IMG/VR virus record: IMGVR_UViG_3300045996_000691
Coordinates: 1-27,283 of that record
DNA: 27,283 nucleotides
From: a virus
Reading direction: 5' to 3' (one strand)
The position numbers and the translations under genes are program-made. The first letter of the stretch is position 1. Every line of letters starts with the position of its first letter. The notes under the pieces are model-generated. The model worked only from the letters and a program-made list of their open reading frames with translations, was not told where the DNA came from and searched no databases. Below, in pieces: positions 3,425 through 14,480 of the stretch.

Positions 3425-3844
3425 ATGAAGAAGTTTTTTGCTGCATTATTAGGATCATTATTAATAGTGGCTACGCTCGTAGCTCCTGCTAGCGCGGCTA
3501 AGCCTTTACCTAAGGTTTTACGAGACATTACAGCAGTAGTAGCAACAGATGCTACTGAAATACATGCTGGTGATACTGTAACATTTACAGCTACCACAAA
3601 TGCTGAATGGTGGAAGCATGAATTGCTTTGCTTTCAGGGGGATAACTTAGTTATGCAGGGAGGATGGAAATTTTATCCTGCGGGTACCGCAAGTGTAACA
3701 CTAACCCTTTCAAGCGGAGCTTATCGACTAAATCCAATTGGTGCTGAATGTGAAGTATGGGTTGCAGTATGGCTAGGCTATGAAAAGAATTATAACGGAA
3801 CATATCGAGTGCCAGAACCACTAAGATTTACTCTGTTACCTTAA
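3425..3844 (+). CDS. Secreted phage protein with Sec signal peptide
   Basis: A product of 139 residues. It starts with a classic signal peptide: two lysines, a hydrophobic core at residues 5-20, and an ASA-A cleavage site near residue 24. The mature part is beta-rich and Trp-rich, with two cysteines (LLCFQG and AECEVW) that could form a disulfide outside the cell. The start is ATG 3425, seven bases after AAGGGGGTGA; an ATG four bases earlier (3421) is in another frame. Its stop overlaps the next start (TAATG). Export suggests action on the host surface, for example exclusion of other phages or envelope modification, which is inference. The family was not recognised. Confidence 0.75.
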   Translation: MKKFFAALLGSLLIVATLVAPASAAKPLPKVLRDITAVVATDATEIHAGDTVTFTATTNAEWWKHELLCFQGDNLVMQGGWKFYPAGTASVTLTLSSGAYRLNPIGAECEVWVAVWLGYEKNYNGTYRVPEPLRFTLLP

Positions 3845-4080
3845 TGAATCCAATTGAAAAATACGCACAGGTAATACTGCATTCAGGGTGCAGTATTCCA
3901 CCTAAAGGTGAGCAAGAACCACGTAAGCATAAATGGGAAGAATGTAGAGCGCAAAAATTCTTCCTAAGAATAGCGTGCAAACATCAGCATAAATTACAAT
4001 CTAATGGACTTACAATAGGATACTGGATACGCGGAGACGTTGATCAAATCCTAGAAATGGTCAAAGGCAAGCTCCCGTAG
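3844..4080 (+). CDS. Hypothetical 78-residue protein ending inside tRNA-Leu
   Basis: A basic, Cys/His-containing protein (WEECRAQKFFLRIACKHQHK) of unknown function, coupled to the upstream gene by TAATG. Codons 11-18 form a perfect 9-bp hairpin in the mRNA (AATACTGCA at 3873-3881 with its complement at 3889-3897), which could affect translation. The stop TAG (4078-4080) is U8-A9-G10 of the following tRNA-Leu, so the last two codons also form tRNA acceptor stem. Confidence 0.65.
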   Translation: MNPIEKYAQVILHSGCSIPPKGEQEPRKHKWEECRAQKFFLRIACKHQHKLQSNGLTIGYWIRGDVDQILEMVKGKLP

Positions 4081-4146
4081 CCCAACGGTAGAGGCAATAG
4101 TTTCAAAAACTATACAGTATCAGTTCGAATCTGATCGGGAGTACCA
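4071..4146 (+). tRNA. tRNA-Leu (CAA), class I body
   Basis: Acceptor GCTCCCG pairs with CGGGAGT; anticodon loop TTCAAAA gives CAA (reads UUG); T loop TTCGAAT, A73 and encoded CCA. The variable loop is five bases (ACAGT), short for Leu. U8-A9-G10 is the stop of the upstream CDS, and the 3' strand CGGGAG lies where the next gene needs a ribosome site. Confidence 0.88.
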
Positions 4147-4148
4147 CA

Positions 4149-4649
4149 ATGTTAGAAGCGTTTGGGAATATTTGGGATCATATTGATGACTACGATGCTG
4201 TAGTCATTACTACTAATGGCTATGTTAAGAAAAACGGCGAAGCTGTTATGGGTAAGGGTATAGCGTTAGAAGCTAGAAATAGGTATCCTTTATTGGCCCA
4301 AGATTTAGGCGACATGCTTACTAAGCATGGAAATAATGTGTTCGGATTTTGCTATGATGAAAATCTTTGGATAATTACGCTACCTGTTAAACCTGAGTAT
4401 GGGCCTAATGGAGAAGTGGGCTGGCGAGCTAAAGCTAGCATTAAATTGATCGAACAGTCAGTATGGCAACTAGCTGGACAGCATCCGTTTTATGGACTAC
4501 TGAGAAATCTTGGGGATGCAGGATTAAATTTAGAGAAGATTATCATGCCAAGACCCGGCTGTGGAAATGGCGGGCTGAAATGGGAAGATGTTAAACCAGT
4601 AATAGAGCCCTACCTAGATGATCGTTTTACTGTGATGGAGAAATTATGA
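4149..4649 (+). CDS. Macro domain protein, TARG1/DarG-like
   Basis: A single-domain protein of 166 residues. Macro-domain features are a ligand-loop Asn (VITTNG, N23), the Gly-rich VMGKGIALEA segment (33-42), and the motif PRPGCGNGGLKW (134-145) typical of the TARG1/ALC1-like branch, which includes the DNA ADP-ribosylglycohydrolase DarG. Members bind ADP-ribose and many remove it from macromolecules. A phage copy could reverse ADP-ribosylation imposed by a host toxin such as DarT, which is inference. ATG lies two bases after the CCA of the preceding tRNA; its only Shine-Dalgarno candidate is the tRNA's own GGGAG. It overlaps the next gene by ATGA. Confidence 0.82.
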   Translation: MLEAFGNIWDHIDDYDAVVITTNGYVKKNGEAVMGKGIALEARNRYPLLAQDLGDMLTKHGNNVFGFCYDENLWIITLPVKPEYGPNGEVGWRAKASIKLIEQSVWQLAGQHPFYGLLRNLGDAGLNLEKIIMPRPGCGNGGLKWEDVKPVIEPYLDDRFTVMEKL

Positions 4650-4876
4650 TTTCATCGCAAGAAGTTCTATATCGTATAGAAGCAATAAACGAAGCTGCGA
4701 GTTTCAATCTTAAATTAGGGCTCGGGGTTATCTATGGATTAATGATGGCAGCTAACTATCCAGAGGAAGCTTCTACATTCTATAGGGATACTTTGAAAGG
4801 CATGGCTAAAGATGCTCCTTTAGAAGTTATTGAAAGAGAATTAGAAGAAGTAGTTAAAGTAATATTAGGTAAATAA
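4646..4876 (+). CDS. Hypothetical 76-residue acidic helical protein
   Basis: Starts within the macro-domain gene (ATGA overlap), so it is translationally coupled to it. The sequence is largely helical and acidic at its C terminus (EVIERELEEVVKVILGK), with one Gly-rich stretch (LGLGVIYGLMMAA). No catalytic motif was seen. Coupling suggests it may work with the macro protein, but no family was recognised. It ends in TAA. Confidence 0.65.
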   Translation: MISSQEVLYRIEAINEAASFNLKLGLGVIYGLMMAANYPEEASTFYRDTLKGMAKDAPLEVIERELEEVVKVILGK

Positions 4877-4877
4877 T

Positions 4878-4899
4878 CCGTTCGAATCTGGAGTACTAA
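4878..4899 (+). pseudogene. Degenerate 3' end of a tRNA
   Basis: Contains an intact T loop (TTCGAAT, 4881-4887) followed by CTGGAGTACTA, closely resembling the T-arm and acceptor end of the upstream tRNA-Leu, but the 5' two thirds of a tRNA are missing and the T stem pairs only partly. GGAG (4890-4893) sits seven bases before the next ATG, so the remnant now appears to serve as a ribosome site. Confidence 0.5.
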
Positions 4900-4900
4900 C

Positions 4901-5197
4901 ATGTGTAGATATAGTGATCACAGATATAGAACACATTATGTATGTTTAAACTGTAGATACCATAAGAAAGATTATCCTGAAAAGGATGTTAAATGTACTC
5001 ACTGTCATAATTTTATGATTAATGTGGGCATGGACTTTAAACCCCCACTTAAACATAGTGATGATCAGTGGGAAAAGTTAAAGCTAATTAATCAAACTAC
5101 AGGTTTAAACAGATATTTTCAAAACTGTGGTTGCGGCGGCTATGGAAGAAGTGCGCCTAAAACAGCAGCAGAAGTTAAACATCCGTATTTAAGATAA
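4901..5197 (+). CDS. Zinc-ribbon small protein
   Basis: A product of 98 residues. Two CxxC pairs, C15-L-N-C18 and C32-T-H-C35, form a probable zinc ribbon, and a C-terminal NCGCGGYG segment adds two more cysteines. Such microproteins often bind nucleic acid or a protein partner, but no specific family was recognised. The start is ATG 4901, whose Shine-Dalgarno GGAG belongs to the tRNA remnant just upstream. It stops ten bases before tRNA-Leu(TAG). Confidence 0.7.
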   Translation: MCRYSDHRYRTHYVCLNCRYHKKDYPEKDVKCTHCHNFMINVGMDFKPPLKHSDDQWEKLKLINQTTGLNRYFQNCGCGGYGRSAPKTAAEVKHPYLR

Positions 5198-5206
5198 TTA
5201 GTTCAG

Positions 5207-5283
5207 GGCCTCGTAGCCCAATCGGTAGAGGCGATAGCCTTAGGAGCTATTTAGTGAGAGTTCGAATCTCTCCGAGGCCACCA
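5207..5283 (+). tRNA. tRNA-Leu (TAG), class I body
   Basis: Acceptor GGCCTCG/CGAGGCC, anticodon loop CTTAGGA (TAG, reads CUA), T loop TTCGAAT, A73 and encoded CCA. The variable loop is five bases (TTAGT). This is the third Leu-anticodon tRNA here without a long variable arm. Confidence 0.9.
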
Positions 5284-5319
5284 ACTTTAATAGAGCGGGG
5301 TGATTGCAAATGACTCCAA

Positions 5320-5532
5320 ATGAATTGGAGGATGGGATACAATCTTAAAGAATTTACATCCAAGGATTTGCGCATCCTTTATAGGAAGCTTTTAATTAAG
5401 GGCTATACCAAAGAGGAAGCTTCTAATCTTTGTGCAGTAATAGTAGGAATACATGCAGTACCCCGAGGTTGGAAACTAGAAGAATTAGAAAGACTCTTAT
5501 TCGAAAGATATAGAGCAGCTACCCGTCCGTAG
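5320..5532 (+). CDS. Hypothetical 70-residue protein ending at tRNA-Arg
   Basis: A basic helical protein (LRILYRKLLIKGYTKEEASNLCAVIVG). The Thr-Lys-Glu-Glu-Ala and hydrophobic pattern resembles small helical DNA-binding or regulatory phage proteins, but no family is recognised. The start is uncertain: ATG 5320 lacks a good ribosome site and ATG 5332 directly abuts GGAGG. The best-spaced start after GGGGTGA is ATG 5310, which opens a different 12-codon frame. Stop TAG 5530-5532 is U8-A9-G10 of tRNA-Arg. Beyond the UAG the frame stays open through the whole tRNA into the gene at 5617. Confidence 0.55.
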   Translation: MNWRMGYNLKEFTSKDLRILYRKLLIKGYTKEEASNLCAVIVGIHAVPRGWKLEELERLLFERYRAATRP

Positions 5533-5599
5533 CTTAATGGATCAAAGCATCTGCCTTCTAAGCAGAGGATTGAAGGTTCGAATCCTTTCGGACGGGCCA
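5523..5599 (+). tRNA. tRNA-Arg (TCT)
   Basis: Acceptor CCGTCCG/CGGACGG, anticodon loop CTTCTAA (TCT, reads AGA), T loop TTCGAAT, G73 and encoded CCA. U8-A9-G10 doubles as the stop codon of the preceding CDS. Confidence 0.93.
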
Positions 5600-5616
5600 A
5601 TTTATTTGAGGGGATT

Positions 5617-5853
5617 ATGAAGAGAATAGAAACTAAGAAAGACTTATTACAGTTTGCAATAGAACGATATAATCATTATGATGCTATCTTTAAGAAAGAA
5701 GATAAAGGTAGTGTGTACGATTCATTCTCAGGTATAACGCACTTTTATCTTAAAGATTTTCTTACTGATCTTCTAGTAATACAAAGGTTTGCGGCAAAGG
5801 ATAACGAAGATGAAAACGGTGAGGAACGGGCAGAAGGTATGGCCGTACTGTAG
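5617..5853 (+). CDS. Hypothetical 78-residue charged protein
   Basis: Starts at ATG 5617 after a GAGGGGATT ribosome site. Charged and helical (MKRIETKKDLLQFAIERYNHY) with an acidic tail (DNEDENGEERAEG). No motif was recognised. Its 3' end overlaps the start of the next gene by about 44 bases in another frame. It ends in TAG, followed by another in-frame TAG a few codons later. Confidence 0.65.
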   Translation: MKRIETKKDLLQFAIERYNHYDAIFKKEDKGSVYDSFSGITHFYLKDFLTDLLVIQRFAAKDNEDENGEERAEGMAVL

Positions 5854-6031
5854 CGATTGCGGCTGTAGGTTAGAAGTTAATTGGGTATTTGAAAATACTG
5901 AGCAGGAACATGCACTAGTCGTGCATTTTTATGATGGTATTATTAATAAAGATGCAAGAGGTCATAGTTGTTCTCTTGTAGATAAAATGTACTTAGCTAA
6001 TAGAAAGATGTTAGCGCATATCGGAGTGTAG
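5810..6031 (+). CDS. Zinc-ribbon-like microprotein ending at tRNA-Pro
   Basis: A product of 73 residues from ATG 5810, eight bases after AAAGGA; an upstream in-frame start at 5789 has no ribosome site. Cysteines CSDCGC near residue 14 and another at ~55 with a His nearby could bind metal. Function unknown. Stop TAG 6029-6031 is U8-A9-G10 of tRNA-Pro, so the final codons are also acceptor stem. Confidence 0.65.
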   Translation: MKTVRNGQKVWPYCSDCGCRLEVNWVFENTEQEHALVVHFYDGIINKDARGHSCSLVDKMYLANRKMLAHIGV

Positions 6032-6099
6032 CTCAGCTTGGTTAGAGCGTCGCGTTTGGGGCGCGAAAGTCGAAGGTTCGAATCCTTTCACTCCGACCA
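6022..6099 (+). tRNA. tRNA-Pro (TGG)
   Basis: Acceptor CGGAGTG/CACTCCG, anticodon stem TCGCG/CGCGA with loop TTTGGGG (TGG, reads CCA), T loop TTCGAAT, A73 and encoded CCA. It supplies the stop codon of the upstream gene. Confidence 0.93.
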
Positions 6100-6124
6100 A
6101 ATTTAATAATGGAGGCGATGATGA

Positions 6125-6589
6125 TTGGCAGGAGTTTACTGTCATATATGTTCATCGCCAGTAGATAAAATGACATTCCCCATGTGGGGAATCGTTTGTA
6201 TAGACTGTGAAATGAGGTACGTACATGACTTAGACGTTAGCAAGGGTAAGGCGATTATTATGAACAAGAATGGAGACAGATATACAGAACAGAGATATAG
6301 GGCGGCTATTGGAAGCGGCCACTTCCCATTAAATTTCAACTTCCTGTTGATCCGTAATGAGAAGTTTACACAGTGTAGCTATTGTGGTTCTTTTGTTCAT
6401 GAAAAAAAGCTTACCCGTGATCACGTCTATCCAAAGAGTAAGGGCGGAATAATAAAGACACCTTGCTGTATGTCATGCAACGTTGAGAAGGAAGATATGC
6501 TTCCTATAGCGTGGGCTATACATGCATCTAAACAACAGAGAGATTTAGCAGTTATTCCTATAGGTTTTACAGAGTTTGGAGAACCTTAG
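6125..6589 (+). CDS. HNH endonuclease
   Basis: A product of 154 residues. The C-terminal half is an HNH nuclease: C84-S-Y-C87, LTRDHVYPKSKGG (96-108) with the catalytic Asp-His, and CCMSCN (114-119) closing the zinc site. An N-terminal zinc knuckle pair (C6-H-I-C9 and C25-I-D-C28) probably helps DNA contact. Such proteins cut DNA as free-standing homing enzymes or as packaging or defence nucleases; its position between two tRNAs, away from terminase, favours a mobile homing type (inference). Start TTG 6125 follows GGAGG by nine bases and lies four bases after an out-of-frame ATG. Confidence 0.82.
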   Translation: MAGVYCHICSSPVDKMTFPMWGIVCIDCEMRYVHDLDVSKGKAIIMNKNGDRYTEQRYRAAIGSGHFPLNFNFLLIRNEKFTQCSYCGSFVHEKKLTRDHVYPKSKGGIIKTPCCMSCNVEKEDMLPIAWAIHASKQQRDLAVIPIGFTEFGEP

Positions 6590-6597
6590 GGTACAGA

Positions 6598-6671
6598 GCG
6601 GGATTAATTAAATGGCATAATGTCTGCCTTCCAAGCAGAATTTAGCGGTTCGAATCCGCTATCCCGCACCA
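6598..6671 (+). tRNA. tRNA-Gly (TCC)
   Basis: Acceptor GCGGGAT/ATCCCGC, anticodon stem TCTGC/GCAGA with loop CTTCCAA (TCC, reads GGA), T stem AGCGG/CCGCT, A73 and encoded CCA. Confidence 0.92.
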
Positions 6672-6681
6672 ATTTTGAGAT

Positions 6682-6831
6682 ATGAAACTTAAAAGTTATA
6701 AACCGGATATCGGATGGAAATGGTTAAAGTGGACATTCGGTGTTTGGTCTGATCCTAAAAATTACACATTATTTGGTATAGATATTGGCCCACTAGAAAT
6801 AGTGTGGCACTTTGAGGGCTATAGACCCTAG
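6682..6831 (+). CDS. Trp-rich 49-residue microprotein
   Basis: ATG 6682 lies ten bases after the CCA of tRNA-Gly; the ribosome site is weak (TTTGAGAT). The 49 residues include five Trp (GWKWLKWTFGVW, VWHF), suggesting a small beta protein. No family was recognised. TAG at 6829-6831 is followed in frame by TGA 13 codons later. It packs exactly between the tRNA and the next gene's ribosome site, which supports it being real. Confidence 0.55.
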   Translation: MKLKSYKPDIGWKWLKWTFGVWSDPKNYTLFGIDIGPLEIVWHFEGYRP

Positions 6832-6844
6832 GGGGTGATTATGT

Positions 6845-7204
6845 TTGGCACAGCACGTAACAGTCTTTGAATCAAAGGCTAGAACAGCTACAACAAGTAG
6901 CAGAGATATTAAAAATTTTGATGGTACTGGTGCCGTAGTAGTTATTGATTGCACCGCTGATCCAGCATCAGCGTCAGTTACATTTACTATCGAAGGTAAA
7001 GACCCGGCATCAGCTAAGTATTATACAATTTTAACGTCGGCTGCAATTACAGGAACAGGTACAACAGTACTAAGAGTACATCCTGACCTAACAGCGGCGG
7101 CAAATACTGTGGCTAAAGATATGCTTCCGGCTGTATGGCGAGTAACTGCTACAGCGGGTAACGGCGACTCATTAACCTACAGTGTAGGAGCATCAATGAT
7201 CTAA
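6845..7204 (+). CDS. Small beta-rich phage structural-type protein
   Basis: A product of 119 residues matching the style of a widespread phage family with the core FTIEGKDPASAKYYTIL, TGTGTTVLRVHP and a C-terminal SLTYSVGASMI, usually annotated hypothetical and probably a virion decoration or cement protein (family assignment from memory, not searched). Start is TTG 6845, six bases after GGGGGTGA, with an out-of-frame ATG four bases earlier. It overlaps the next gene as TAATG. Confidence 0.7.
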   Translation: MAQHVTVFESKARTATTSSRDIKNFDGTGAVVVIDCTADPASASVTFTIEGKDPASAKYYTILTSAAITGTGTTVLRVHPDLTAAANTVAKDMLPAVWRVTATAGNGDSLTYSVGASMI

Positions 7205-7371
7205 TGGAAGATATAGAAAGATTAAAGAGTGCTTATAGTACAGCACTTACAAAACTAAAGAGTGGTAAGGTCGGGGGCTCTAATGGATTGGAGCGAGATT
7301 ACGCTACTGCGTATGACAAACTAGCACTAGCTGGCGGGGCTCAAAGACTTAGAAGAAAATACCGGCCATAA
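7204..7371 (+). CDS. Small helical phage protein (55 residues)
   Basis: ATG 7204 overlaps the stop of the preceding gene. Helical and basic: IERLKSAYSTALTKLKSG, then ERDYATAYDKLALAGGAQRLRRKYR. Short proteins of this pattern commonly follow the preceding family in phage genomes and may be structural partners; no function is known to me. It ends in TAA four bases before tRNA-Gly(GCC). Confidence 0.65.
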   Translation: MEDIERLKSAYSTALTKLKSGKVGGSNGLERDYATAYDKLALAGGAQRLRRKYRP

Positions 7372-7375
7372 TTAT

Positions 7376-7450
7376 GCGGTAGTCGTATAAAGGCTATTAT
7401 ACGTGCTTGCCATGCACGCGATCAGGGTTCGATTCCCTGTTACCGCACCA
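7376..7450 (+). tRNA. tRNA-Gly (GCC)
   Basis: Acceptor GCGGTAG/TTACCGC (one G-U), anticodon stem CGTGC/GCACG with loop TTGCCAT (GCC, reads GGC/GGU), T arm CAGGG-TTCGATT-CCCTG, A73 and encoded CCA. Confidence 0.9.
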
Positions 7451-7459
7451 AGGAATTAT

Positions 7460-7882
7460 ATGAGTAAATATATATGTAATCCATGTATGACTGACGATCA
7501 CTCTAAGCATGAATATAGCGATGAGGAATGTAAGAGTACATGGACAGATAGCACATGTGGTTGTGCTTGGAGGTTGATGGGTATGGAGAAGGTTTATGAA
7601 ATACCAGTAGAAGAAAGTACTACTTTACCTAGCGCAGTAAAAGGTGGTTGGCAGCCTTACCAAACAAGCGATACATTTGGAAATATCTCTACTTCTAATA
7701 CGATAGATTATAACTGGTGGGTATATCCTCAAACAATTTATATGTATCAGGTACGGTGCCCTAAGCGTGGCTGTAAGACAGATAATTGGCTACAGCTAGA
7801 CACGATAACTCCGTGCAAAAAGTGTGGATCGCATCTAAAGGCAGTTTCCATGAAGGCAGACTTTGAAATCGAGGTAGGTTGA
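7460..7882 (+). CDS. Multi-zinc-knuckle protein
   Basis: A product of 140 residues with cysteine clusters throughout: CNPC near the N terminus, ECKS and CGC at ~23-35, and a C-terminal CPKRGC ... CKKCG ribbon at ~100-122. Probably a small zinc protein; the specific role is unknown. I chose ATG 7460 (AAGGA five bases upstream) over the in-frame start inside the tRNA gene. Its stop overlaps the -35 box of the next promoter. Confidence 0.7.
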   Translation: MSKYICNPCMTDDHSKHEYSDEECKSTWTDSTCGCAWRLMGMEKVYEIPVEESTTLPSAVKGGWQPYQTSDTFGNISTSNTIDYNWWVYPQTIYMYQVRCPKRGCKTDNWLQLDTITPCKKCGSHLKAVSMKADFEIEVG

Positions 7883-7908
7883 CAAGTCTAGCTCATCTAT
7901 GTTAATAT
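7879..7908 (+). promoter_or_regulatory. Extended -10 promoter for RNA B
   Basis: TTGACA (7879-7884), 18-bp spacer ending TGT, TAATAT (7903-7908). Same architecture as the promoter at 2917, including TTGACAA and an extended -10. The predicted start (~7914-7916) coincides with the 5' strand of a long terminal helix. Confidence 0.78.
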
Positions 7909-7913
7909 GAGTA

Positions 7914-8056
7914 TGGTGCAGTAGCGGGAGAGTGCGAGAGCGCCAAAGGTACCAGTAGATAATTTCTATGCGCTCATTGGTCGCCCTAATCTTTAGGGTA
8001 AGGTACATGACCCGTCCAGTTGGTTTCGCACACATAATCTGGATTCTACTGCACCA
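7914..8056 (+). ncRNA. Structured small RNA B with tRNA-like acceptor and CCA end
   Basis: An 11-bp perfect terminal helix joins 7914-7924 to 8046-8056. Read as an acceptor stem it is GCAGTAG/CTACTGC, followed by A and CCA (8053-8056). Inside are nested helices GTGCGA/TCGCAC (7932-7937 with 8026-8031), AGCGC/GCGCT (7939-7943 with 7970-7974), a GTAGA/TCTAT hairpin (~7955-7969) and CCCTAA/TTAGGG (7984-7998). There is no T loop, anticodon arm or convincing ORF. It has its own promoter immediately upstream. It is not recognised as tmRNA, 6S or RNase P. Confidence 0.72.
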
Positions 8057-8065
8057 AATAAATAT

Positions 8066-8140
8066 GGGCCGGTAGCTCAACGGTAGAGCGCGGGACTTTT
8101 AATCCAAGGGTTGTAGGTTCGAATCCTATCCGGCTCACCA
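8066..8140 (+). tRNA. tRNA-Lys (TTT)
   Basis: Acceptor GGGCCGG/CCGGCTC, D stem GCTC/GAGC, anticodon loop CTTTTAA (TTT, reads AAA), T loop TTCGAAT, A73 and encoded CCA. The anticodon stem has mismatches at its outer pairs (CGGGA/TCCAA). Confidence 0.88.
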
Positions 8141-8172
8141 ATCTTTTTGGTTGATAGAAACCATATATTAAA

Positions 8173-8355
8173 GTGAGTAAATTTCACGTACATATTTGCA
8201 CACCAAGAAACGAATGTAGCATGGATGGCTACAGAGTAAATATCAGGACACCTTGGAAGTTTATTATTATTGCTTTAAATCCTAATGCTAGGGTAGTTAA
8301 GTATTTTAATAGTAAACCTAAGTGGATTGATATTTCAGATATCAGGAATAAATAA
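8173..8355 (+). CDS. Hypothetical 60-residue protein
   Basis: GTG 8173 gives MSKFHVHICTPRN and a hydrophobic middle (WKFIIIALNPNARVV). No clear ribosome site precedes it, so both start and reality are moderately uncertain, but it fills the gap between tRNA-Lys and the next gene (TAATATG junction). No family was recognised. Confidence 0.45.
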   Translation: MSKFHVHICTPRNECSMDGYRVNIRTPWKFIIIALNPNARVVKYFNSKPKWIDISDIRNK

Positions 8356-8356
8356 T

Positions 8357-8536
8357 ATGAGACACCTTGCAATACTCGGGGGCTATTGGGATCACAATCA
8401 GCCTTACTGCGCATTGTGCCATAAGCCGATTATTAAATCCGTAGCTATTCATGGGTATAATAAGCAAGGTGTTCCTAAATGGTTACATAAAAGACAATGG
8501 GCGGGTAGTTCAATGGATGGAACGGGAGACTCTTAA
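8357..8536 (+). CDS. Hypothetical CxxC microprotein ending in a tRNA anticodon loop
   Basis: ATG 8357 gives 59 residues with a C-A-L-C knuckle near residue 20. The coding frame runs 38 bases into the next tRNA-Lys and stops at UAA formed by tRNA positions 36-38 (8534-8536), so the C-terminal WAGSSMDGTGDS is translated tRNA sequence. Function unknown. A longer in-frame TTG start at 8327 is less likely because it would overlap the preceding gene. Confidence 0.5.
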   Translation: MRHLAILGGYWDHNQPYCALCHKPIIKSVAIHGYNKQGVPKWLHKRQWAGSSMDGTGDS

Positions 8537-8575
8537 CCTCCGCGTATGTGGGTTCGATTCCCACCCCGCTCACCA
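8499..8575 (+). tRNA. tRNA-Lys (CTT)
   Basis: Acceptor GGGCGGG/CCCGCTC, anticodon stem GGAGA/CCTCC (A31-C39 mismatch), loop CTCTTAA (CTT, reads AAG), T arm GTGGG-TTCGATT-CCCAC, A73 and encoded CCA. Its 5' half overlaps a CDS. Confidence 0.88.
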
Positions 8576-8615
8576 AACTTTTGACCCAAATAAACTCTTG
8601 TTAGAGGGTTAATAC

Positions 8616-9068
8616 ATGTTACGGGAATATCCGTACAACGTTGTACCGGACTCGTATAGGGCTAGGGTATATAGATGGAAGCGTAAGAACCATCAAAAAA
8701 TTACAAATCCCATTATTAAGGATTTGTTAGCTGGTAAGACATTACTTGTAGACGCTCAAATTCCTATCCATACGAAAGGCGGATTCCCAAGGGAATTCCG
8801 GTCCCTATACAACACTTTTTCAAGCCGAGGATATCGGCTGCATTGTTATATGTACGATGATGTTGATCGTGACATCTATCGCGCATTAATTATGTGGGCT
8901 GAGCCTCTTGTTAAACTTTGGAATTGTAGCCGATGTGGTAATTTTGAAGTTTCTAATGAAGAGGGTAAGCCATCGAATAAGCATTGTGATTCCAAGTATC
9001 GGGCTCACTCTTGGCGCTCAGTTAAGGAAATGCATAAGCACCATTTTATAGAGAGCGCTGTCGCTTAA
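8616..9068 (+). CDS. Hypothetical 150-residue basic zinc protein
   Basis: Starts at ATG 8616, six bases after AGAGGGTT. Basic N terminus (SYRARVYRWKRKNHQK), a middle with a DxD-like YDDVDRD, and a C-terminal CSRCG ... C-D-S cysteine set followed by His-rich HKHHF. Probably a metal-binding nucleic-acid protein by composition; no family was recognised. It ends five bases before tRNA-Trp. Confidence 0.65.
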   Translation: MLREYPYNVVPDSYRARVYRWKRKNHQKITNPIIKDLLAGKTLLVDAQIPIHTKGGFPREFRSLYNTFSSRGYRLHCYMYDDVDRDIYRALIMWAEPLVKLWNCSRCGNFEVSNEEGKPSNKHCDSKYRAHSWRSVKEMHKHHFIESAVA

Positions 9069-9073
9069 AATAT

Positions 9074-9147
9074 ATGGAGGTCGTTCAACGGTAGGACTAC
9101 AGTCTCCAAAACTGTCAATCAGGGTTCGAATCCCTGCCGCCATGCCA
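9074..9147 (+). tRNA. tRNA-Trp (CCA)
   Basis: Anticodon stem ACAGT/ACTGT with loop CTCCAAA (CCA, reads UGG); G73 matches Trp identity; T arm CAGGG-TTCGAAT-CCCTG; encoded CCA. The acceptor ATGGAGG/CCGCCAT carries one A-G mismatch at 5-68. Confidence 0.88.
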
Positions 9148-9188
9148 AATCCAATTGTCTAATATAGACCAGCGAAAGGATCATAGTT

Positions 9189-10184
9189 ATGCCATTACAG
9201 CACCTAATTAATCACGTTGCACTTGTTGTAGATAAGTCTGGTTCAATGCGAGGGCATTCACAGAAGGTTGTGGAAGTCTTTGACAGGGAGCTAAACGCTC
9301 TAAAGCAGCGCAGCGTTGATGCACATCAGGAAACTAGAATTTCAATATATCTATTTGATGATAAGATTGAAGTTTTAACTTTTGATATGGATGTAATGAG
9401 ATTTACGTCCCTAAAAGATTACTATAAGATTGGTGGACAAACTGCTCTTATTGATGCAACATTAAGCGCAATATTAGATCACCAGAAACTTCCAGAATTA
9501 TACGGGGACCATGCATTCCTCCTGTATGTTATCACAGACGGACAGGAAAACGCTAGTAGAATTAATACAAGAGATTCAATCTCTAATACATTAAAAACTC
9601 TAGCTGATAACTGGACTACAGGTATTCTTGTACCAGATCAGAACGGGGTTAGATACGCACAGCAATTCGGCTTTAATGCTGGATCGATTGCTACTTGGGA
9701 TACAAGCGCATCCTTTGAGAATGTCGGGCAGAATTTCAATTCTGTTATGACAAACTATATGGACATGCGTTCCAAGGGTATTCGTTCTACAAAGACTCTC
9801 TTTACTCTTGATTCTTCAACATTAAATCAGGCGGGTAGAGAGCTTAATGAGCTACCTGTACAGGATTACGATGTATTCCCTGTTCATCAGAAAGTTGCAA
9901 TTAAGCCCTATGTTGAATCATGGACAGGCGATAAGTATCGTCTAGGTTCAGCTTACTATGAGCCCGCAGATAAAGTTGTCATTCAGGATCATAAGAGCCT
10001 ACTTGTACAAAACAAGAAGAATGGTAAGGTTTATTGGGGCCATAGAATTCGTGATCTATTAGGACTACCTTACGATACAGTTAAGGTTGATCCCGGTGTT
10101 CATAAGGATTGGCGCATTTTTGTTCAATCTACATCAGTAAATAGAAATCTTCTACCTAATACATACGTATTGGTAATGAAGTAA
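9189..10184 (+). CDS. VWA-domain (MIDAS) protein
   Basis: A product of 331 residues. The N-terminal ~200 residues form a von Willebrand A domain with a full metal site: D15-K-S17-G-S19, T85 in GGQTALID, and D117 in VITDGQEN. The C-terminal ~110 residues form a separate beta-rich domain (VFPVHQKVAIKPYV ... NTYVLVMK). There is no signal peptide, so it probably acts in the cytoplasm. VWA proteins bind ligands or partner ATPases through Mg2+; no MoxR partner lies nearby. Start ATG 9189 follows AAAGGATC. It ends in a terminator hairpin that contains its own stop codon. Confidence 0.82.
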   Translation: MPLQHLINHVALVVDKSGSMRGHSQKVVEVFDRELNALKQRSVDAHQETRISIYLFDDKIEVLTFDMDVMRFTSLKDYYKIGGQTALIDATLSAILDHQKLPELYGDHAFLLYVITDGQENASRINTRDSISNTLKTLADNWTTGILVPDQNGVRYAQQFGFNAGSIATWDTSASFENVGQNFNSVMTNYMDMRSKGIRSTKTLFTLDSSTLNQAGRELNELPVQDYDVFPVHQKVAIKPYVESWTGDKYRLGSAYYEPADKVVIQDHKSLLVQNKKNGKVYWGHRIRDLLGLPYDTVKVDPGVHKDWRIFVQSTSVNRNLLPNTYVLVMK

Positions 10185-10203
10185 GCCGCTAATGCGGCTT
10201 TTC
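10184..10203 (+). terminator. Terminator after the VWA gene
   Basis: AGCCGC-TAAT-GCGGCT followed by TTT. It overlaps the last base of the VWA stop codon and the first base of tRNA-Asp. The U tract is short, so termination may be partial, and the hairpin could also mark a processing site. Confidence 0.6.
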
Positions 10204-10278
10204 CTCCTATCGTTTAATGGCTAAGGACACTTGACTGTCTATCAGGAGATACGGGTTCGATTCCCGTTGGGAGGGCCA
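10203..10278 (+). tRNA. tRNA-Asp (GTC)
   Basis: Acceptor CCTCCTA/TGGGAGG, anticodon loop CTGTCTA (GTC, reads GAC/GAU), G73 as expected for Asp, T arm ACGGG-TTCGATT-CCCGT, encoded CCA. The next CDS begins at the very next base, with GGGAGG of the acceptor in Shine-Dalgarno position. Confidence 0.92.
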
Positions 10279-10431
10279 ATGAAAAACCACGATAAAAAAC
10301 TTCTCAAAGATCAACTTGATAAGCTTGACTGGCACGACTTGCTACGATATCAACATATAGTAGATGATGTAGTACAAAAACGTCGTGAGAAAATTGTTGA
10401 TGAACGATATAAAAAATATGGAGACTACTAG
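10279..10431 (+). CDS. Hypothetical 50-residue charged helical protein
   Basis: ATG 10279 directly abuts the CCA of tRNA-Asp. An in-frame start at 10231 lies inside the tRNA and was rejected. The product is highly charged and helical (KKLLKDQLDKLDWHDLLRY, DDVVQKRREKIVDERYKKY). Function unknown. Cleavage after the tRNA CCA would give a leaderless message. It ends in TAG with TGA six codons later. Confidence 0.62.
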   Translation: MKNHDKKLLKDQLDKLDWHDLLRYQHIVDDVVQKRREKIVDERYKKYGDY

Positions 10432-10448
10432 CAAGGGGTTGATCATGA

Positions 10449-11159
10449 TTGAGGATTTTCTACTGGAATAAGAAACAAAACTTTGGGGATTTATTAGGTC
10501 CCCTTCTTCTAGAGAAATTCTCTCGTATCTCAACCACATGGAGCGAAGCTAAAGACAGTGAGATAGTTTCAACAGGTTCCATCATAGGCTTGCTTCCATC
10601 AGATTACACAGGTATTATTGCAGGATCGGGTAAGCTAAAAGAAGAGTCTCAGGTTCCGAAGAATGCTAAGGTATTAGGTCTACGTGGACCATTATCAGCT
10701 AAAGGAATACAGGGAAACTTTATTCTAGGCGATCCCGGCTTACTAGCAGACGAGCTAATAGATAGACCTGATAAGGAATATGAGTTAGGTATCGTAGCTC
10801 ATTGGACAGATGATAAATTAATACATGATCCAAGATTTACCAGATATAATCCTAAAATTATCCGTGTAAGTGACGAGCCTTTAGAAGTTATTCGTCAAAT
10901 AGGTCAGTGTAAAAAGATAATAAGCTCATCATTACATGGAATTATACTAGCAGATGCGTTCGGAATTTCTAGGCGCATCGAGTTAGCGCCTAAACAGCTA
11001 ACTCCACAAGAGGGAGGGCTGTTTAAATGGCGCGATTATCATGCTAGTATAGGTATGAAATTAGAGATAGGTATAACTAAACAACCTTCACCACTTCTTG
11101 TTTCCGAGAGGCAGCATGAGCTATATGATATGTTTAAAGAATTGAGGCGCTATAAGTGA
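10449..11159 (+). CDS. Polysaccharide pyruvyltransferase family protein
   Basis: A product of 236 residues with the family signatures: NFGD near the N terminus (11-14), LRGPLSAKGI (78-87), ILGDPGLLA (92-100), GIVAHWTD, and the SSSLHGIILADAFG motif with His163. Relatives transfer pyruvate from PEP to sugars of cell-surface polymers. It is shorter than most bacterial members, and similar short forms occur in phages. Start is TTG 10449 after AGGGGTTGATC, with an out-of-frame ATG four bases earlier. It overlaps the next gene by GTGA, implying coupled translation and a shared glycan-related task. Confidence 0.82.
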   Translation: MRIFYWNKKQNFGDLLGPLLLEKFSRISTTWSEAKDSEIVSTGSIIGLLPSDYTGIIAGSGKLKEESQVPKNAKVLGLRGPLSAKGIQGNFILGDPGLLADELIDRPDKEYELGIVAHWTDDKLIHDPRFTRYNPKIIRVSDEPLEVIRQIGQCKKIISSSLHGIILADAFGISRRIELAPKQLTPQEGGLFKWRDYHASIGMKLEIGITKQPSPLLVSERQHELYDMFKELRRYK

Positions 11160-12049
11160 ATTGGAAAGGATGGCTAATCAGGCTCCGATTAAAGAAACGG
11201 CCAGAGATTAGTATCCTGATGCCATTCACCAGCGATGAGTCCTACCGTCAGGAAGCTTTTAAATGGTTAAAAGAATACTGGAAATATGAGCTACCAGACG
11301 CAGAGTTTATTGTAGGTCGTTCTAATGGTAAGCCCTTTGTAAAGACTGAGGCGCTTAATCATGCTGCTAAGCGTGCTAATGGTAAAGTCTTTGTAGTACT
11401 TGATGCCGACGCTTTATTGTCGGGACCTGTATTAGAAATTTGTGCCAAAGATATTCTAGAAGCACTTAAATATGATCATCGTATATGGTATGTTCCCTAT
11501 CGAAACTTATATAGACTAAATAAGAATCTAACTAGAGCATTACTTCGATCTGATCCTAAAAGTTTTTCAGTATATGAATTAGAGAGAATTACTGATCAAT
11601 TAGATACCGATCCTCATGAAAGTCGATACGGTAAATCTTATGCGGCTATGGCGTATGTCATACCTAGAGAAGCCCTAAAAGTTATTGGTTGCTTTGATGA
11701 AAGATTCGATAAGGGATGGGGCGGGGAAGATGTTTCCACCCTTAAAGCACTAGATACTCTATGGGGAAAGCATAAGACTACAAATAATTATATTCTTCAT
11801 TTCTGGCACCCAAAGCTAGGTTCAGGATTTAAGAACAGAGCTTGGGAAGGTCAACAAGGCACAAACTCAGATATCTCTATGAGATACTATAGAGCAGGGA
11901 ATGATCCTGCTAAGATGAGACAACTAGTGTTAGAAGGTTGTGCCTATGGAAAAGAGAAGCATAAGTGCGACGGTAGACTCGGTAAGGCTAAATGCAAAAT
12001 CCGAGGATACTACAAGAAAATACGAAGCTTCCGTAGCTCAGCCCGGTAG
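11156..12049 (+). CDS. GT-A family glycosyltransferase ending inside tRNA-Phe
   Basis: A product of 297 residues. GT-A fold features: EISILMPFTSD at 17-27, a metal/nucleotide DxD in VLDADALL (D83, D85), and GWGGEDV (187-193) typical of the acceptor-side ED motif in GT2/GT7-like enzymes. The C-terminal tail is Lys/Cys-rich. Its GTG start overlaps the pyruvyltransferase stop. The last codons (SFRSSAR) and the stop TAG (12047-12049) lie inside tRNA-Phe, in its D loop. The pair may decorate virion proteins or remodel host surface sugars; I cannot choose between them. Confidence 0.82.
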   Translation: MNWKGWLIRLRLKKRPEISILMPFTSDESYRQEAFKWLKEYWKYELPDAEFIVGRSNGKPFVKTEALNHAAKRANGKVFVVLDADALLSGPVLEICAKDILEALKYDHRIWYVPYRNLYRLNKNLTRALLRSDPKSFSVYELERITDQLDTDPHESRYGKSYAAMAYVIPREALKVIGCFDERFDKGWGGEDVSTLKALDTLWGKHKTTNNYILHFWHPKLGSGFKNRAWEGQQGTNSDISMRYYRAGNDPAKMRQLVLEGCAYGKEKHKCDGRLGKAKCKIRGYYKKIRSFRSSAR

Positions 12050-12103
12050 AGCGGCGGTTTGAAGGTCCGCGCGTCATCGGTTCAAATCCGGTCGGAAGCA
12101 CCA
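12027..12103 (+). tRNA. tRNA-Phe (GAA)
   Basis: Acceptor GCTTCCG/CGGAAGC, D stem GCTC/GAGC, anticodon loop TTGAAGG (GAA, reads UUC/UUU), T31-T39 mismatch, T loop TTCAAAT, A73 and encoded CCA. The 5' 23 bases also encode the end of the glycosyltransferase. Confidence 0.9.
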
Positions 12104-12125
12104 ACTTGACAAATGGAGGGCGGTT

Positions 12126-12332
12126 ATGGCACACTACAAGCGTAAGCGCCCAAAGGAATATACTATACGGGATTGCGGATATCGTAGCTGCAAACAGGAC
12201 AAGGGCAAGCTTCAAAATCCTAACGGTAAGGACAGATATTTATTTAGACAATGGATGAGAGTACCATTTGAAGGTAAAAATCCTTGGAGGCATAAAAGAA
12301 ATGACATAGGCACGATACACGATTACAGTTAA
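12126..12332 (+). CDS. Hypothetical 68-residue basic protein
   Basis: ATG 12126 with GGAGGG five bases upstream. Very basic (HYKRKRPKEYTIRDCGYRSCKQDKGK), with a C-x5-C pair, probably nucleic-acid binding by composition. It overlaps the following amber-interrupted ORF by 32 bases in another frame. Family unknown. Confidence 0.62.
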   Translation: MAHYKRKRPKEYTIRDCGYRSCKQDKGKLQNPNGKDRYLFRQWMRVPFEGKNPWRHKRNDIGTIHDYS

Positions 12333-12537
12333 TGGTTATAAGGTTAAGCAGTGTAAAGAGGGTACACCTACAGCGTGTATTCGGATCGAAGATAAAGAAG
12401 ATAGTAGCGGAATGAAGTACGCTAAGTCTATCAAGATTGATGGACCAAGTAAAATTCTTCAAGCTGACTTTGATCCCGAGAATCCTAATAAACCTTTTAT
12501 TTGGATCGAGACTGACGGGCCAATAGAGTATGGCTGA
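12301..12537 (+). CDS. ORF with in-frame amber codon at position 3 (possible readthrough gene)
   Basis: Reads ATG-ACA-TAG, then 75 further sense codons (ARYTITVNGYKVKQCKEG ... FIWIETDGPIEYG) and TGA. GGAGG lies ten bases before the ATG. No other ATG, GTG or TTG is in frame until an internal ATG with no good ribosome site, so the protein-like N-terminal half is unreachable unless UAG is read as sense or a non-standard start is used. Its TGA overlaps the next gene's ATG (ATGGCTGA), as expected for a translated gene. A tRNA with anticodon CUA lies about 400 bases downstream. If not read through, it is a pseudogene by a nonsense mutation. Confidence 0.55.
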
Positions 12538-12730
12538 TATTGAAGTAGATAAAAAATGGATCGATGAGATTAAGAAAATTACCGATCCTAATGACTTAAT
12601 GAATGAATTAGCTATTCTACATTTAGAAGTACATGGTGTAGGTGATCCCTACTACCGCGACTTATATGAAGCAATTTGTGAAAGAGCTATAGAGTTAAGA
12701 GAAACTTATAATAGAAACAAGCGCCCTTAG
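12530..12730 (+). CDS. Hypothetical 66-residue acidic protein ending in the suppressor tRNA
   Basis: ATG 12530 overlaps the stop of the preceding ORF. Helical and acidic (VDKKWIDEIKKITDPNDLMNELAIL, YRDLYEAICERAIELRETY). Function unknown. Its TAG stop (12728-12730) is U8-A9-G10 of the CUA-anticodon tRNA, so the tRNA that may read UAG supplies this gene's UAG. Confidence 0.65.
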   Translation: MADIEVDKKWIDEIKKITDPNDLMNELAILHLEVHGVGDPYYRDLYEAICERAIELRETYNRNKRP

Positions 12731-12797
12731 CTCAATTGGTTAGAGCGGTCGCCTCTAAAGCGATGTGTTAAGGGTTCAAATCCCTTAGGGCGCTCCA
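12721..12797 (+). tRNA. Amber suppressor tRNA (anticodon CTA)
   Basis: A complete cloverleaf: acceptor GCGCCCT/AGGGCGC, D stem GCTC/GAGC with GG in the loop, anticodon stem GTCGC/GCGAT, loop CTCTAAA with anticodon CTA at 12755-12757, variable loop of five, T arm AAGGG-TTCAAAT-CCCTT, U73 and encoded CCA. U33 and A37 are normal. CUA pairs with UAG. The amino acid is not evident: U73, G1-C72 and C2-G71 resemble Gly acceptors, but anticodon-dependent synthetases would not see their usual bases. Confidence 0.88.
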
Positions 12798-12799
12798 CT

Positions 12800-12877
12800 G
12801 GCAGGGTACCCGAGCAGAAATCAGGGACTTACCCGCAAGGTAAGAATACGTAGGTTAGAGTCCTACCCCTGCCTCCA
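12800..12877 (+). tRNA. tRNA-Cys (GCA), non-canonical elbow
   Basis: Acceptor GGCAGGG/CCCTGCC, D stem CCC/GGG, anticodon stem CTTAC/GTAAG with loop CCGCAAG (GCA, reads UGC/UGU), T stem GTAGG/CCTAC, U73 (the Cys discriminator) and encoded CCA. Oddities: C33 instead of U33, T loop TTAGAGT without C56, and a D loop lacking the GG pair. It starts two bases after the suppressor tRNA. Confidence 0.72.
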
Positions 12878-12892
12878 CAATTAGGGTAAATT

Positions 12893-13186
12893 ATGGAAAA
12901 TGTATGGGATCAAATACGCGCTCTAGAAAAAGGTTGGGATAGTTACGGAGGTAATCCCATATCAGAAGATGTAATAAATACAGCTCAATGGATTCAACTA
13001 TTCTTTAAGAATACTGGATTAAATGAGCCACATCCTATACCCGGACCAGACGGTAGTATTACCTTTGAATGGGATAAGGCAATGTTAACTATTGAATCTG
13101 ATTTAAGTATATCAATTTATACTGAATTTAAGAGTGAGCTTGTACAAGCTGCTTGGGAAAAAACTTGGAAAGCTATCGCGGATTAG
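12893..13186 (+). CDS. Hypothetical 97-residue acidic protein ending in tRNA-His
   Basis: ATG 12893 after AGGGTAAATT. Resembles a common small bacterial/phage family with a KGWDSYGG motif near residue 14, then HPIPGPDGSITFEWD and a closing beta segment (MLTIESDLSISIY). Its function is unknown to me. Stop TAG 13184-13186 is U8-A9-G10 of the next tRNA. Confidence 0.7.
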   Translation: MENVWDQIRALEKGWDSYGGNPISEDVINTAQWIQLFFKNTGLNEPHPIPGPDGSITFEWDKAMLTIESDLSISIYTEFKSELVQAAWEKTWKAIAD

Positions 13187-13251
13187 TGTAGTGGCAGCAC
13201 AGTTGACTGTGAATCAGCTAGGAACGGATCGTAACCGTAGTTCCGCGACCA
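13177..13251 (+). tRNA. tRNA-His (GTG), atypical T arm
   Basis: Anticodon stem GTTGA/TCAGC with loop CTGTGAA (GTG, reads CAC/CAU). The acceptor starts CGCGGA; U at -1 could pair with A73, in place of the usual G-1:C73. The T arm is weak (ACGG-ATCGTAA-CCGT) and competes with a GGAAC/GTTCC hairpin. Encoded CCA. Confidence 0.72.
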
Positions 13252-13261
13252 GAAATAAGAT

Positions 13262-13585
13262 ATGAATAGAGAAACAATCTACACAGAACGCGGGGCAATA
13301 ACTCCGCTACAAAACGGTAAAGCTGTTTGGGTAAGAGGCGTTGGTAACTCAATGACTCCTATCCTAAAGAGTAAAGATATAGTGTTTGTTGAGCCTGTTA
13401 CCGATGATATGCGCTTAGAAAAAGGTGACATAGTATTAGTTAAGGTTCATGGCAATGTTTACTTGCACAAGATTACTGCGGTTAAAGGCCAGCAGGAATT
13501 CCAGATTAGTAATAATCATGGTCATGTAAATGGTTGGGCACCTAGGAGACAGGTTTATGGAATTGTCACCATATTGCCAGTATGA
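13262..13585 (+). CDS. S24/S26-like serine peptidase domain, stand-alone
   Basis: A product of 107 residues. Peptidase core: GNSMTPILKSKDIVFVEP with Ser30 as nucleophile, EKGDIVLVKV (53-62), YLHKITAV with Lys70 as the likely general base, then the closing ISNNHGHVNGW and VYGIVTIL strands. This matches the LexA/UmuD/signal-peptidase clan. There is no DNA-binding domain and no membrane anchor, so it is neither a full repressor nor a typical signal peptidase. It may cleave itself, a repressor or a virion protein (inference). ATG 13262 has a poor ribosome site. Confidence 0.78.
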   Translation: MNRETIYTERGAITPLQNGKAVWVRGVGNSMTPILKSKDIVFVEPVTDDMRLEKGDIVLVKVHGNVYLHKITAVKGQQEFQISNNHGHVNGWAPRRQVYGIVTILPV

Positions 13586-13763
13586 AAAGTTACGAAAAGA
13601 ATATAACGTAGCTGTTGCTAATGGCCTTATAATTAAGGCAAGGCAATTAGATCGTGTGATTAAGTCTATAAGAAATAATGCTAGAGCAACGGCGGCTGAG
13701 GATTCCTCTGGCGGATTCCGAGAATTTTTTGGATGTGCATGTGTACATTGCAAGTCCCCTTAG
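13557..13763 (+). CDS. Hypothetical 68-residue protein ending at tRNA-Ile
   Basis: ATG 13557 follows AGGAGA by seven bases and overlaps the peptidase gene's end in another frame; an upstream in-frame start at 13530 has no ribosome site. A helical middle (EKLRKEYNVAVANGLIIKARQLDRVIKSIR) is followed by a C-terminal CACVHC cluster. Function unknown. The stop TAG (13761-13763) is U8-A9-G10 of tRNA-Ile. Confidence 0.65.
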   Translation: MELSPYCQYEKLRKEYNVAVANGLIIKARQLDRVIKSIRNNARATAAEDSSGGFREFFGCACVHCKSP

Positions 13764-13829
13764 TATAATGGTTCATTATAATTGTCTGATAAGCAGTAGA
13801 AAACAGTTCGATTCTGTTAGGGGGCACCA
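13754..13829 (+). tRNA. tRNA-Ile (GAT)
   Basis: Acceptor GTCCCCT/AGGGGGC, anticodon stem ATTGT/GCAGT with loop CTGATAA (GAT, reads AUC/AUU), T loop TTCGATT, A73 and encoded CCA. It supplies the upstream stop codon and, through AGGGGG, a possible ribosome site for the CDS beginning at the next base. Confidence 0.87.
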
Positions 13830-14009: not shown

Positions 14010-14014
14010 TATGA

Positions 14015-14212: not shown

Positions 14213-14233
14213 CCATATAAGGGGGTGATAAGG

Positions 14234-14305
14234 ATGGACATACTAACAGTACTAGTTATTATTCTTATCTTTTTAATTATATTGAAGGTATTAAAGATTG
14301 TGTAA
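14234..14305 (+). CDS. 23-residue single-span membrane peptide
   Basis: ATG 14234 lies downstream of a strong AAGGGGGTGATAAGG ribosome region. The whole product is one hydrophobic helix with a short basic end (MDILTVLVIILIFLIILK, then VLKIV). It is probably inserted in the cytoplasmic membrane, as holin-like or regulatory micropeptides are; function unknown. Its last codons overlap the TTG start of the next gene. Confidence 0.55.
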   Translation: MDILTVLVIILIFLIILKVLKIV

Positions 14306-14480
14306 TAAACATGAAAAGGAAATGCAGTGGGTATGTGACACACAGGTTTGTGGGCTATGTTATGAAGAATGGCTAGCTAGTGAACCTGTTAGACTTCCTA
14401 AGCTTCCTCCATTCGATCCTGACTCTATGTTTATAGTAGGCGGGCATCGAATAGATGTTAATCGTTCTCCTGTAGTCTAA
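14298..14480 (+). CDS. Zinc-binding microprotein ending inside tRNA-Gln
   Basis: TTG 14298 overlaps the end of the membrane-peptide gene, suggesting coupling. The 60 residues start with a metal cluster: C2, H5, C13, C18 and C21 (CNKHEK, WVCD, VCGLCYEEW), then a Pro-rich middle (VRLPKLPPFDPD). It resembles a B-box-like or treble-clef knuckle, not assignable further. Its stop TAA (14478-14480) lies inside tRNA-Gln. Confidence 0.58.
   Translation: MCNKHEKEMQWVCDTQVCGLCYEEWLASEPVRLPKLPPFDPDSMFIVGGHRIDVNRSPVV

What the first reader, a model, noticed from the sequence alone, without database searches (positions are those of the whole stretch)
4071..13763. tRNA U8-A9-G10 serves as the UAG stop codon of six upstream genes
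CDSs ending at 4080, 5532, 6031, 12730, 13186 and 13763 all take their TAG from positions 8-10 of the next tRNA (Leu-CAA, Arg-TCT, Pro, suppressor, His, Ile). RNase P cleavage at the tRNA 5' end would remove the final codons and the stop, leaving non-stop messages; translation would instead intrude on the tRNA. Each transcript may thus become tRNA or full-length mRNA, and the UAGs are also potential suppressor targets.
Basis: partly seen in the sequence, partly recalled or inferred. Interest (0 to 1): 0.78.

Follow-up and report, generated by a model that had tools for sequence, protein, structure and literature searches.

The report
Phage genes borrowing tRNA stop codons
In this gene-packed phage, six small genes end inside the tRNA gene that follows and use its built-in UAG as their stop codon; related phages suggest this is a recurring by-product of tight packing rather than a conserved switch.

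Summary
Six ORFs end at TAG = positions 8-10 of the next tRNA. Three more ORFs run into tRNAs in other frames and stop at positions 13, 21 and 36.

The window is a whole 27.3-kb IMG/VR record. Twenty-seven terminase relatives give a comparative test. Three of the six ORFs have homologs there, and none keeps the fusion: relatives have their own stop before the same tRNA, or no tRNA follows closely. The other three are orphans. The UAG belongs to the tRNA and is usual in the orthologous tRNAs.

Across relatives, gene ends drift across tRNA 5' ends. One HNH gene stops at -15, -10, -7, -2, +8, +13, +13, +15, +20 and +21 relative to tRNA-Gly. A null that removes a gene's own stop puts about 24% of in-tRNA stops at position 8. 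Relatives show 8/30 and the window 6/9, a modest post-hoc excess. T5 has annotated gene-tRNA overlaps of the same kind.

Best reading: passive capture of the tRNA's UAG in a dense array. The either-tRNA-or-mRNA switch and the suppressor-target idea are not supported, though untested at RNA level.

The parts
3844..4080 (+). small ORF (78 aa, ends KLP) whose TAG is tRNA-Leu(CAA) positions 8-10
   Evidence: homologs in L011 (43% id, own TAA at -6) and L009/L010
4071..4146 (+). tRNA-Leu (CAA)
   Evidence: ARAGORN; Rfam 59.1 bits
5320..5532 (+). small ORF (70 aa, ends TRP) whose TAG is tRNA-Arg(TCT) positions 8-10
   Evidence: homolog in L011 (39% id, own TAA at -9)
5523..5599 (+). tRNA-Arg (TCT)
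   Evidence: Rfam 70.7 bits
5810..6031 (+). small Cys-rich protein gene (listed as TTG 5789; homolog N-termini suggest ATG 5810), TAG is tRNA-Pro(TGG) positions 8-10
   Evidence: 11 homologous hits (L009 and L010 identical), none ending inside a tRNA
6022..6099 (+). tRNA-Pro (TGG)
   Evidence: Rfam 64.7 bits
12530..12730 (+). orphan ORF (66 aa, ends KRP), TAG is positions 8-10 of the CUA-anticodon tRNA
   Evidence: codon z 2.9; no homolog
12721..12797 (+). tRNA with CUA anticodon (amber-suppressor-like; ARAGORN label 'Pyl')
   Evidence: Rfam 69.9 bits; CUA tRNAs also in L002, L004, L011
12893..13186 (+). orphan ORF (97 aa, ends IAD), TAG is tRNA-His positions 8-10
   Evidence: codon z 4.4; no homolog
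13177..13251 (+). tRNA-His (GTG)
   Evidence: Rfam 32.4 bits
13530..13763 (+). orphan ORF (77 aa, ends KSP; alternative ATG 13557), TAG is tRNA-Ile positions 8-10; weakest coding evidence of the six
   Evidence: z about 2; no homolog
13754..13829 (+). tRNA-Ile (GAT); the next ORF's ATG (13830) abuts its CCA
   Evidence: Rfam 54.4 bits
11156..12049 (+). glycosyltransferase-like gene entering tRNA-Phe in another frame, stop at position 21
14298..14480 (+). ORF entering tRNA-Gln in another frame, stop TAA at position 13
8357..8536 (+). ORF entering tRNA-Lys(CTT) in another frame, stop at position 36

Best explanation
This is passive stop capture in a crowded tRNA array. The phage strings tRNAs on one strand and packs small, fast-changing genes between them, usually ending a few bases before the next tRNA. 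When a gene loses its own stop, or is trimmed or inserted so that it reaches the tRNA, translation ends at the first in-frame stop in the tRNA. In one of three frames that stop is U8-A9-G10, which the tRNA usually carries for its own reasons; in the other frames genes stop deeper. Overlap is tolerated because the genes are small and the tRNA stays intact. Shown: positions, drift of gene ends across relatives, presence of UAG in the orthologous tRNAs whether or not a gene overlaps, other-frame overlaps, T5 precedent. Inferred: that both products come from the same transcripts, by translation first and RNase P cleavage later, with leftover non-stop fragments going to normal ribosome rescue.
For: Homologs of three of the six ORFs end before the same tRNA or without a tRNA close behind: Leu ORF TAA at -6 in L011, Arg ORF TAA at -9 in L011, Pro ORF 0 of 11 hits ending inside a tRNA. 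The HNH gene before tRNA-Gly(TCC) stops at -10, -15, +13, +8, +13, +15, -7, -2, +21 and +20 in 10 distinct loci. A small Cys-rich gene before tRNA-Phe stops at TAG 8 in three phages and at TGA 34 in two. A gene that ends at position 8 of tRNA-Arg in L024 reads through a whole tRNA-Ile in L013 and L025 and ends at UAG 8-10 of tRNA-Gln. UAG is present at 8-10 in 5/9 Leu(CAA), 9/12 Arg, 7/11 Pro, 4/4 CUA, 8/12 His and 7/15 Ile orthologs, window included. The stop-removal null puts 24.0% of in-tRNA stops at position 8 in relatives; observed 8/30. T5 has four annotated same-strand CDS ends inside tRNAs, at positions 4, 12, 21 and 22, two of them HNH genes.
Against: The window itself has 6 of 9 in-tRNA stops at position 8 against the null's 24% (p=0.008) and 6/16 junctions against 8/105 in relatives (p=0.003), so a local preference for the shortest overlap, or something more, is possible. 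In the tRNA-Phe case the overlap itself (not the frame) is seen in five diverged phages. The survey loci also lean to position 8 (10/24, p=0.052), although their seed pattern required TAG there.
Confidence: 0.8

Rival explanations
1. Dual-fate switch: each transcript is used either as mRNA, read to the UAG, or as tRNA precursor, cut by RNase P into a non-stop message. The overlap thereby sets the ratio of small protein to tRNA.
For: The geometry is real at six junctions. The same model was proposed for selB with a nested or overlapping tRNA-Sec (PMC8124441), so it is mechanistically reasonable.
Against: The fusion is not kept in relatives for the three testable genes. Overlaps occur in all frames. 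Genes and tRNAs have no evident functional pairing. Genes that end a few bases before the tRNA would occlude its 5' end almost as much (inference from ribosome footprint size, recalled).
Confidence: 0.08
2. The UAGs are programmed targets of the phage's own CUA tRNA: suppression extends the proteins into or through the tRNA.
For: A CUA-anticodon tRNA with a high cloverleaf score is in the window and CUA tRNAs occur in L002, L004 and L011. Read-through of the Arg-side UAG would stay open through the whole tRNA-Arg and join in frame with ORF 5617-5853.
Against: The other five extensions are 5-40 aa of translated tRNA and spacer. TAG still closes 9 of 25 ORFs of at least 100 codons in the window. 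The fusion at the CUA tRNA is absent from L002 and L004; in L011 the frame before it is open for only 27 codons. The Leu, Arg and Pro ORF homologs in L011, which has a CUA tRNA, use TAA, TAA and a TAG 41 bases upstream.
Confidence: 0.04
3. Some of the six ORFs are not genes; open frames happen to run into the tRNA.
For: ORF 13530-13763 has no homolog and only a weak codon signal (z about 2). In the 613-tRNA survey, open frames of at least 60 aa before tRNAs are nearly even among frames (17, 20, 14).
Against: Three have homologs in the same frame, best E about 4e-14, 1e-10 and 8e-13, and mostly in the same place. Two others have codon z 2.9 and 4.4.
Confidence: 0.08

Closest known systems
Bacteriophage T5 tRNA region (AY543070)
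   Same: tRNAs interspersed with small genes and HNH endonuclease genes, tRNA-like stable RNAs, and annotated same-strand genes ending inside tRNAs: T5.057 at position 4, hegC at 12, hegD at 21, T5.069 at 22, by the record's tRNA boundaries
   Different: none of the T5 overlaps checked uses positions 8-10; the window's terminase has no T5 hit by tblastn
selB-selC (tRNA-Sec) overlaps in Proteobacteria (PMC8124441; abstract and passages read)
   Same: gene stop lies in or beyond a same-strand tRNA; processing would give a non-stop mRNA; some related strains have a stop before the tRNA
   Different: one functionally linked gene-tRNA pair, with the overlap conserved across many species; here many unlinked pairs, not conserved where testable
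Mitochondrial tRNA punctuation and gene-tRNA overlaps (search listing; model otherwise recalled)
   Same: tRNAs between protein genes; cleavage at tRNA ends can leave messages without a complete stop
   Different: mitochondria can complete stops by polyadenylation; no such repair is known to me in phages
Unidirectional overlapping genes formed by stop loss (PMC3887535, abstract read)
   Same: the upstream gene loses its stop and ends at the next in-frame stop inside its neighbour
   Different: there the neighbour is a protein gene; here it is a tRNA, which usually supplies a fixed UAG in one frame
Mycobacteriophage Fionnbharth gene 37 / tRNA-Lys (PMC10865867 passages; JN831653)
   Same: a tRNA overlaps the 3' end of a phage gene
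   Different: the tRNA is on the opposite strand, so it does not supply a U8-A9-G10 stop

Membership tests
T5-type tRNA region (organisation) | many same-strand tRNAs with small genes and HNH genes between them | tested here: met
   21 tRNAs, 20 junctions with a gap of at least 150 b; HNH gene 6125-6589
T5-type tRNA region (organisation) | same-strand genes ending inside tRNAs | tested here: met
   9 of 16 junctions in the window; T5 has 4 annotated cases
T5 relatives (Demerecviridae) | homologous terminase | tested here: not met
   tblastn of the window terminase hits only Moorella phage MTATph1 and GX15bay at E 1e-5
selB-selC type regulatory overlap | overlap conserved across related species | tested here: not met
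   0 of 3 testable fusions kept in relatives; the other 3 not testable
selB-selC type regulatory overlap | gene product acts with the overlapping tRNA | tested here: inconclusive
   none of the six ORFs has a Pfam hit; five were also run against PHROGs without a hit
Stop capture after stop loss | relatives have an own stop just upstream of the same neighbour | tested here: met
   L011 Leu -6 and Arg -9; Pro at -8, -7, -2 and -3 in several relatives
TAG-reassigned phage | TAG absent as terminator, present inside genes | tested here: not met
   9 of 25 window ORFs of at least 100 codons end in TAG
Dual-fate transcript | mRNA and tRNA are alternative products of one transcript | not testable with these tools
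   needs RNA mapping during infection

The most novel reading that the evidence does not exclude
The excess of position-8 stops in this one phage reflects selection. In particular, the gene ending inside the CUA suppressor tRNA makes a feedback loop: suppressor activity sends ribosomes past the UAG into the tRNA's own precursor and so limits its maturation, while the other five junctions tie small-protein output to tRNA release.
Probability: 0.04. Interest if true: 0.75.

Novelty: new member of a known kind. Interest (0 to 1): 0.3.

Why it matters
It shows how a nearly fixed tRNA feature, U8 followed often by A9-G10, acts as a ready-made stop codon in one frame, and how dense phage tRNA arrays let gene ends slide over tRNAs. 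Gene callers that forbid CDS-tRNA overlap would misplace or drop such genes. The junctions are natural test pieces for how translation and RNase P share one transcript.

Tried and rejected
Homolog searches for the three orphan ORFs in viral contigs found none. Rfam gave no family other than tRNA above its gathering score. A megablast of 3000-17000 against phages gave no match. PHROGs and Pfam gave no hit for the six ORFs (five of the six; all six). Fionnbharth was considered as a same-strand precedent and rejected because its tRNA is on the opposite strand. The downstream side, gene starts placed at the tRNA 3' end, was checked: in 72 cases with a homology-supported ORF, only 4 candidate starts lie within 8 bases of CCA, so it is not a general rule. 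DNA alignments at the Leu and Pro junctions were too diverged to show which bases changed.

Caveats on counts. 'Nonredundant' means distinct upstream 50 bases (or 60), so near relatives (L015, L017, L023) partly repeat. The homology-supported set of 86 junctions counts one L013 ORF at two tRNAs and may hold a few ORFs that are translated tRNA. The survey and bacterial loci were fetched with a pattern that begins with TAG at positions 8-10, which biases them toward position 8; the null uses the same loci. The bacterial set (7 of 14 in-tRNA stops at 8, of 79 ORF ends) is therefore a weak control. The codon model (built, used) was trained on stop-free stretches of at least 250 codons of the same loci, and its signal is weak.
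Full report
WHAT IS THERE. The window is a whole IMG/VR virus record of 27,283 bases, possibly a genome fragment, with a terminase, portal and other structural genes downstream of a 13-kb array of 21 tRNAs, all on the + strand. Small genes fill nearly every interval: 20 of 21 tRNAs have at least 150 bases before them that are free of tRNA. The six named ORFs do end at TAG = tRNA positions 8-10. Three others enter a tRNA in another frame (stops at positions 13, 21 and 36). The Pro-side gene probably starts at ATG 5810 (homolog N-termini). Three ORFs have homologs among relatives, two more have codon bias (z 2.9 and 4.4), and one, 13530-13763, is weakly supported.

ARE THE FUSIONS KEPT? A terminase search gave 27 related loci; those with tRNAs have largely the same tRNA order and partly different genes between them. 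The Leu-side gene in L011 has its own TAA ending four bases before tRNA-Leu; the Arg-side gene in L011 has its own TAA ending seven bases before tRNA-Arg; the Pro-side gene has 11 homologous hits (L009 and L010 identical), none ending in a tRNA. The three remaining ORFs have no relative to compare in those loci or by separate scans.

GENE ENDS SLIDE OVER tRNAs. The HNH gene before tRNA-Gly(TCC) is the clearest natural series: in 10 distinct loci (13 with near-identical copies) it stops at -15, -10, -7, -2, +8 (TGA), +13, +13, +15, +20 and +21. A small Cys-rich gene before tRNA-Phe ends at TAG 8 in L019, L021 and L024 and at TGA 34 in L013 and L025. A further gene ends at position 8 of tRNA-Arg in L024, while its homologs in L013 and L025 read through an entire tRNA-Ile and stop at UAG 8-10 of tRNA-Gln. 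Among 86 homology-supported junctions (window included), stops cluster at -10 to -1, 33 lie inside or past the start of a tRNA and 12 of those at position 8. The tRNAs that supply UAG in the window also carry it in many relatives: Arg 9/12, Pro 7/11, His 8/12, Leu 5/9, Ile 7/15, CUA 4/4, window included. The stop is thus a property of the tRNA that genes run into.

IS IT MORE THAN CHANCE? I removed each gene's own stop, by substitution or short deletion, at junctions where that stop lies just before a tRNA, and asked where translation would end. About 24% of stops that then fall inside the tRNA (deletion version) land at position 8 (relatives 0.240, survey loci 0.248). Observed: relatives 8/30, survey 10/24, window 6/9 (p = 0.43, 0.052 and 0.008). 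On the window's own 7 own-stop junctions the same null gives 0.080. The window is therefore enriched, also against junction totals (6/16 against 8/105, p=0.003). This is a test on a window selected for the feature. A mild preference for the shortest overlap would suffice to explain it.

HOW IT MOST LIKELY WORKS. In a packed array a gene that loses its stop ends at the first in-frame stop of the tRNA. One frame usually offers UAG at 8-10 after only two or three extra codons; the others tend to give longer tails. Both products can come from one transcript if ribosomes pass first and RNase P cuts later; leftover cut messages would be handled by ribosome rescue. This last part is inference. Four of the six products end in proline, a context I recall as slow to terminate in E. 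coli; I read no paper on it here (search listing).

SUPPRESSOR. A CUA-anticodon tRNA is present here and in L002, L004 and L011, with L011's of a visibly different sequence. TAG remains a common terminator in the window (9 of 25), although the other three CUA-tRNA loci show fewer TAG ends (3/12, 2/18, 2/22) than the seven loci without it that were counted (48/165 in all); this would fit some suppressor activity but rests on crude ORF counts. Only the window has a gene-length ORF fused to the CUA tRNA. Read-through tails are 17, 106, 24, 40, 15 and 5 aa.

COMPARISON. T5 has the same organisation and four annotated genes ending inside tRNAs, at positions 4, 12, 21 and 22, but is not a terminase relative at the sensitivity used. 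Felix O1 ORF97 ends at position 5 of a tRNA-Ile. The dual-fate model has been proposed for selB-selC (PMC8124441 passages). Stop loss followed by capture is a proposed origin of same-strand gene overlaps (PMC3887535 abstract). Full-text searches for gene-tRNA overlaps listed no paper that I recognised as describing U8-A9-G10 as a shared stop in phages; one search returned none, only titles and abstract starts were seen for most, and these searches cover open-licence papers only.

VERDICT. A real and tidy observation, best explained as passive stop capture; new member of a known kind; interest 0.3.

Noticed in passing
window 12800-12877: A probable tRNA-Cys (GCA) missed at ARAGORN's default threshold, found with a relaxed one; complete acceptor and CCA, odd T loop.
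   Followed up: partly
window 15768-15844; 7908-8055; 2930-3290; 14715-15040; 15125-15320: Stretches without clear ORFs that look structured, two of them with tRNA-like CCA ends, without an Rfam match; reminiscent of T5's tRNA-like stable RNAs of unknown function.
   Followed up: partly
window 5320-5853: The ORF before tRNA-Arg, the whole tRNA-Arg and ORF 5617-5853 are one frame interrupted only by the UAG at tRNA 8-10.
   Followed up: no
L013:4858-5418 and L025:7831-8421: A gene reads through an entire tRNA-Ile and ends at UAG 8-10 of the next tRNA-Gln.
   Followed up: partly
window 10279, 13830, 4149: ATGs lie 0-2 bases after a tRNA's CCA, with a Shine-Dalgarno-like G-run inside the tRNA acceptor 3' strand; rare in homology-supported genes.
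   Followed up: partly
survey loci L029-L148 and relatives L002-L028: Genes before tRNAs end in a sharp mode at about -10 to -1 from the tRNA 5' end in the survey phages too, which may say something about leader length for RNase P.
   Followed up: no
window 1141-2460: Long protein with dozens of degenerate GQAQAxI repeats, tail-fibre-like by my reading.
   Followed up: no
window 12721; L002:5769; L004:3548; L011:8024: CUA-anticodon tRNAs differ clearly in sequence between relatives, and L011's has a different discriminator base, hinting at repeated origin.
   Followed up: no
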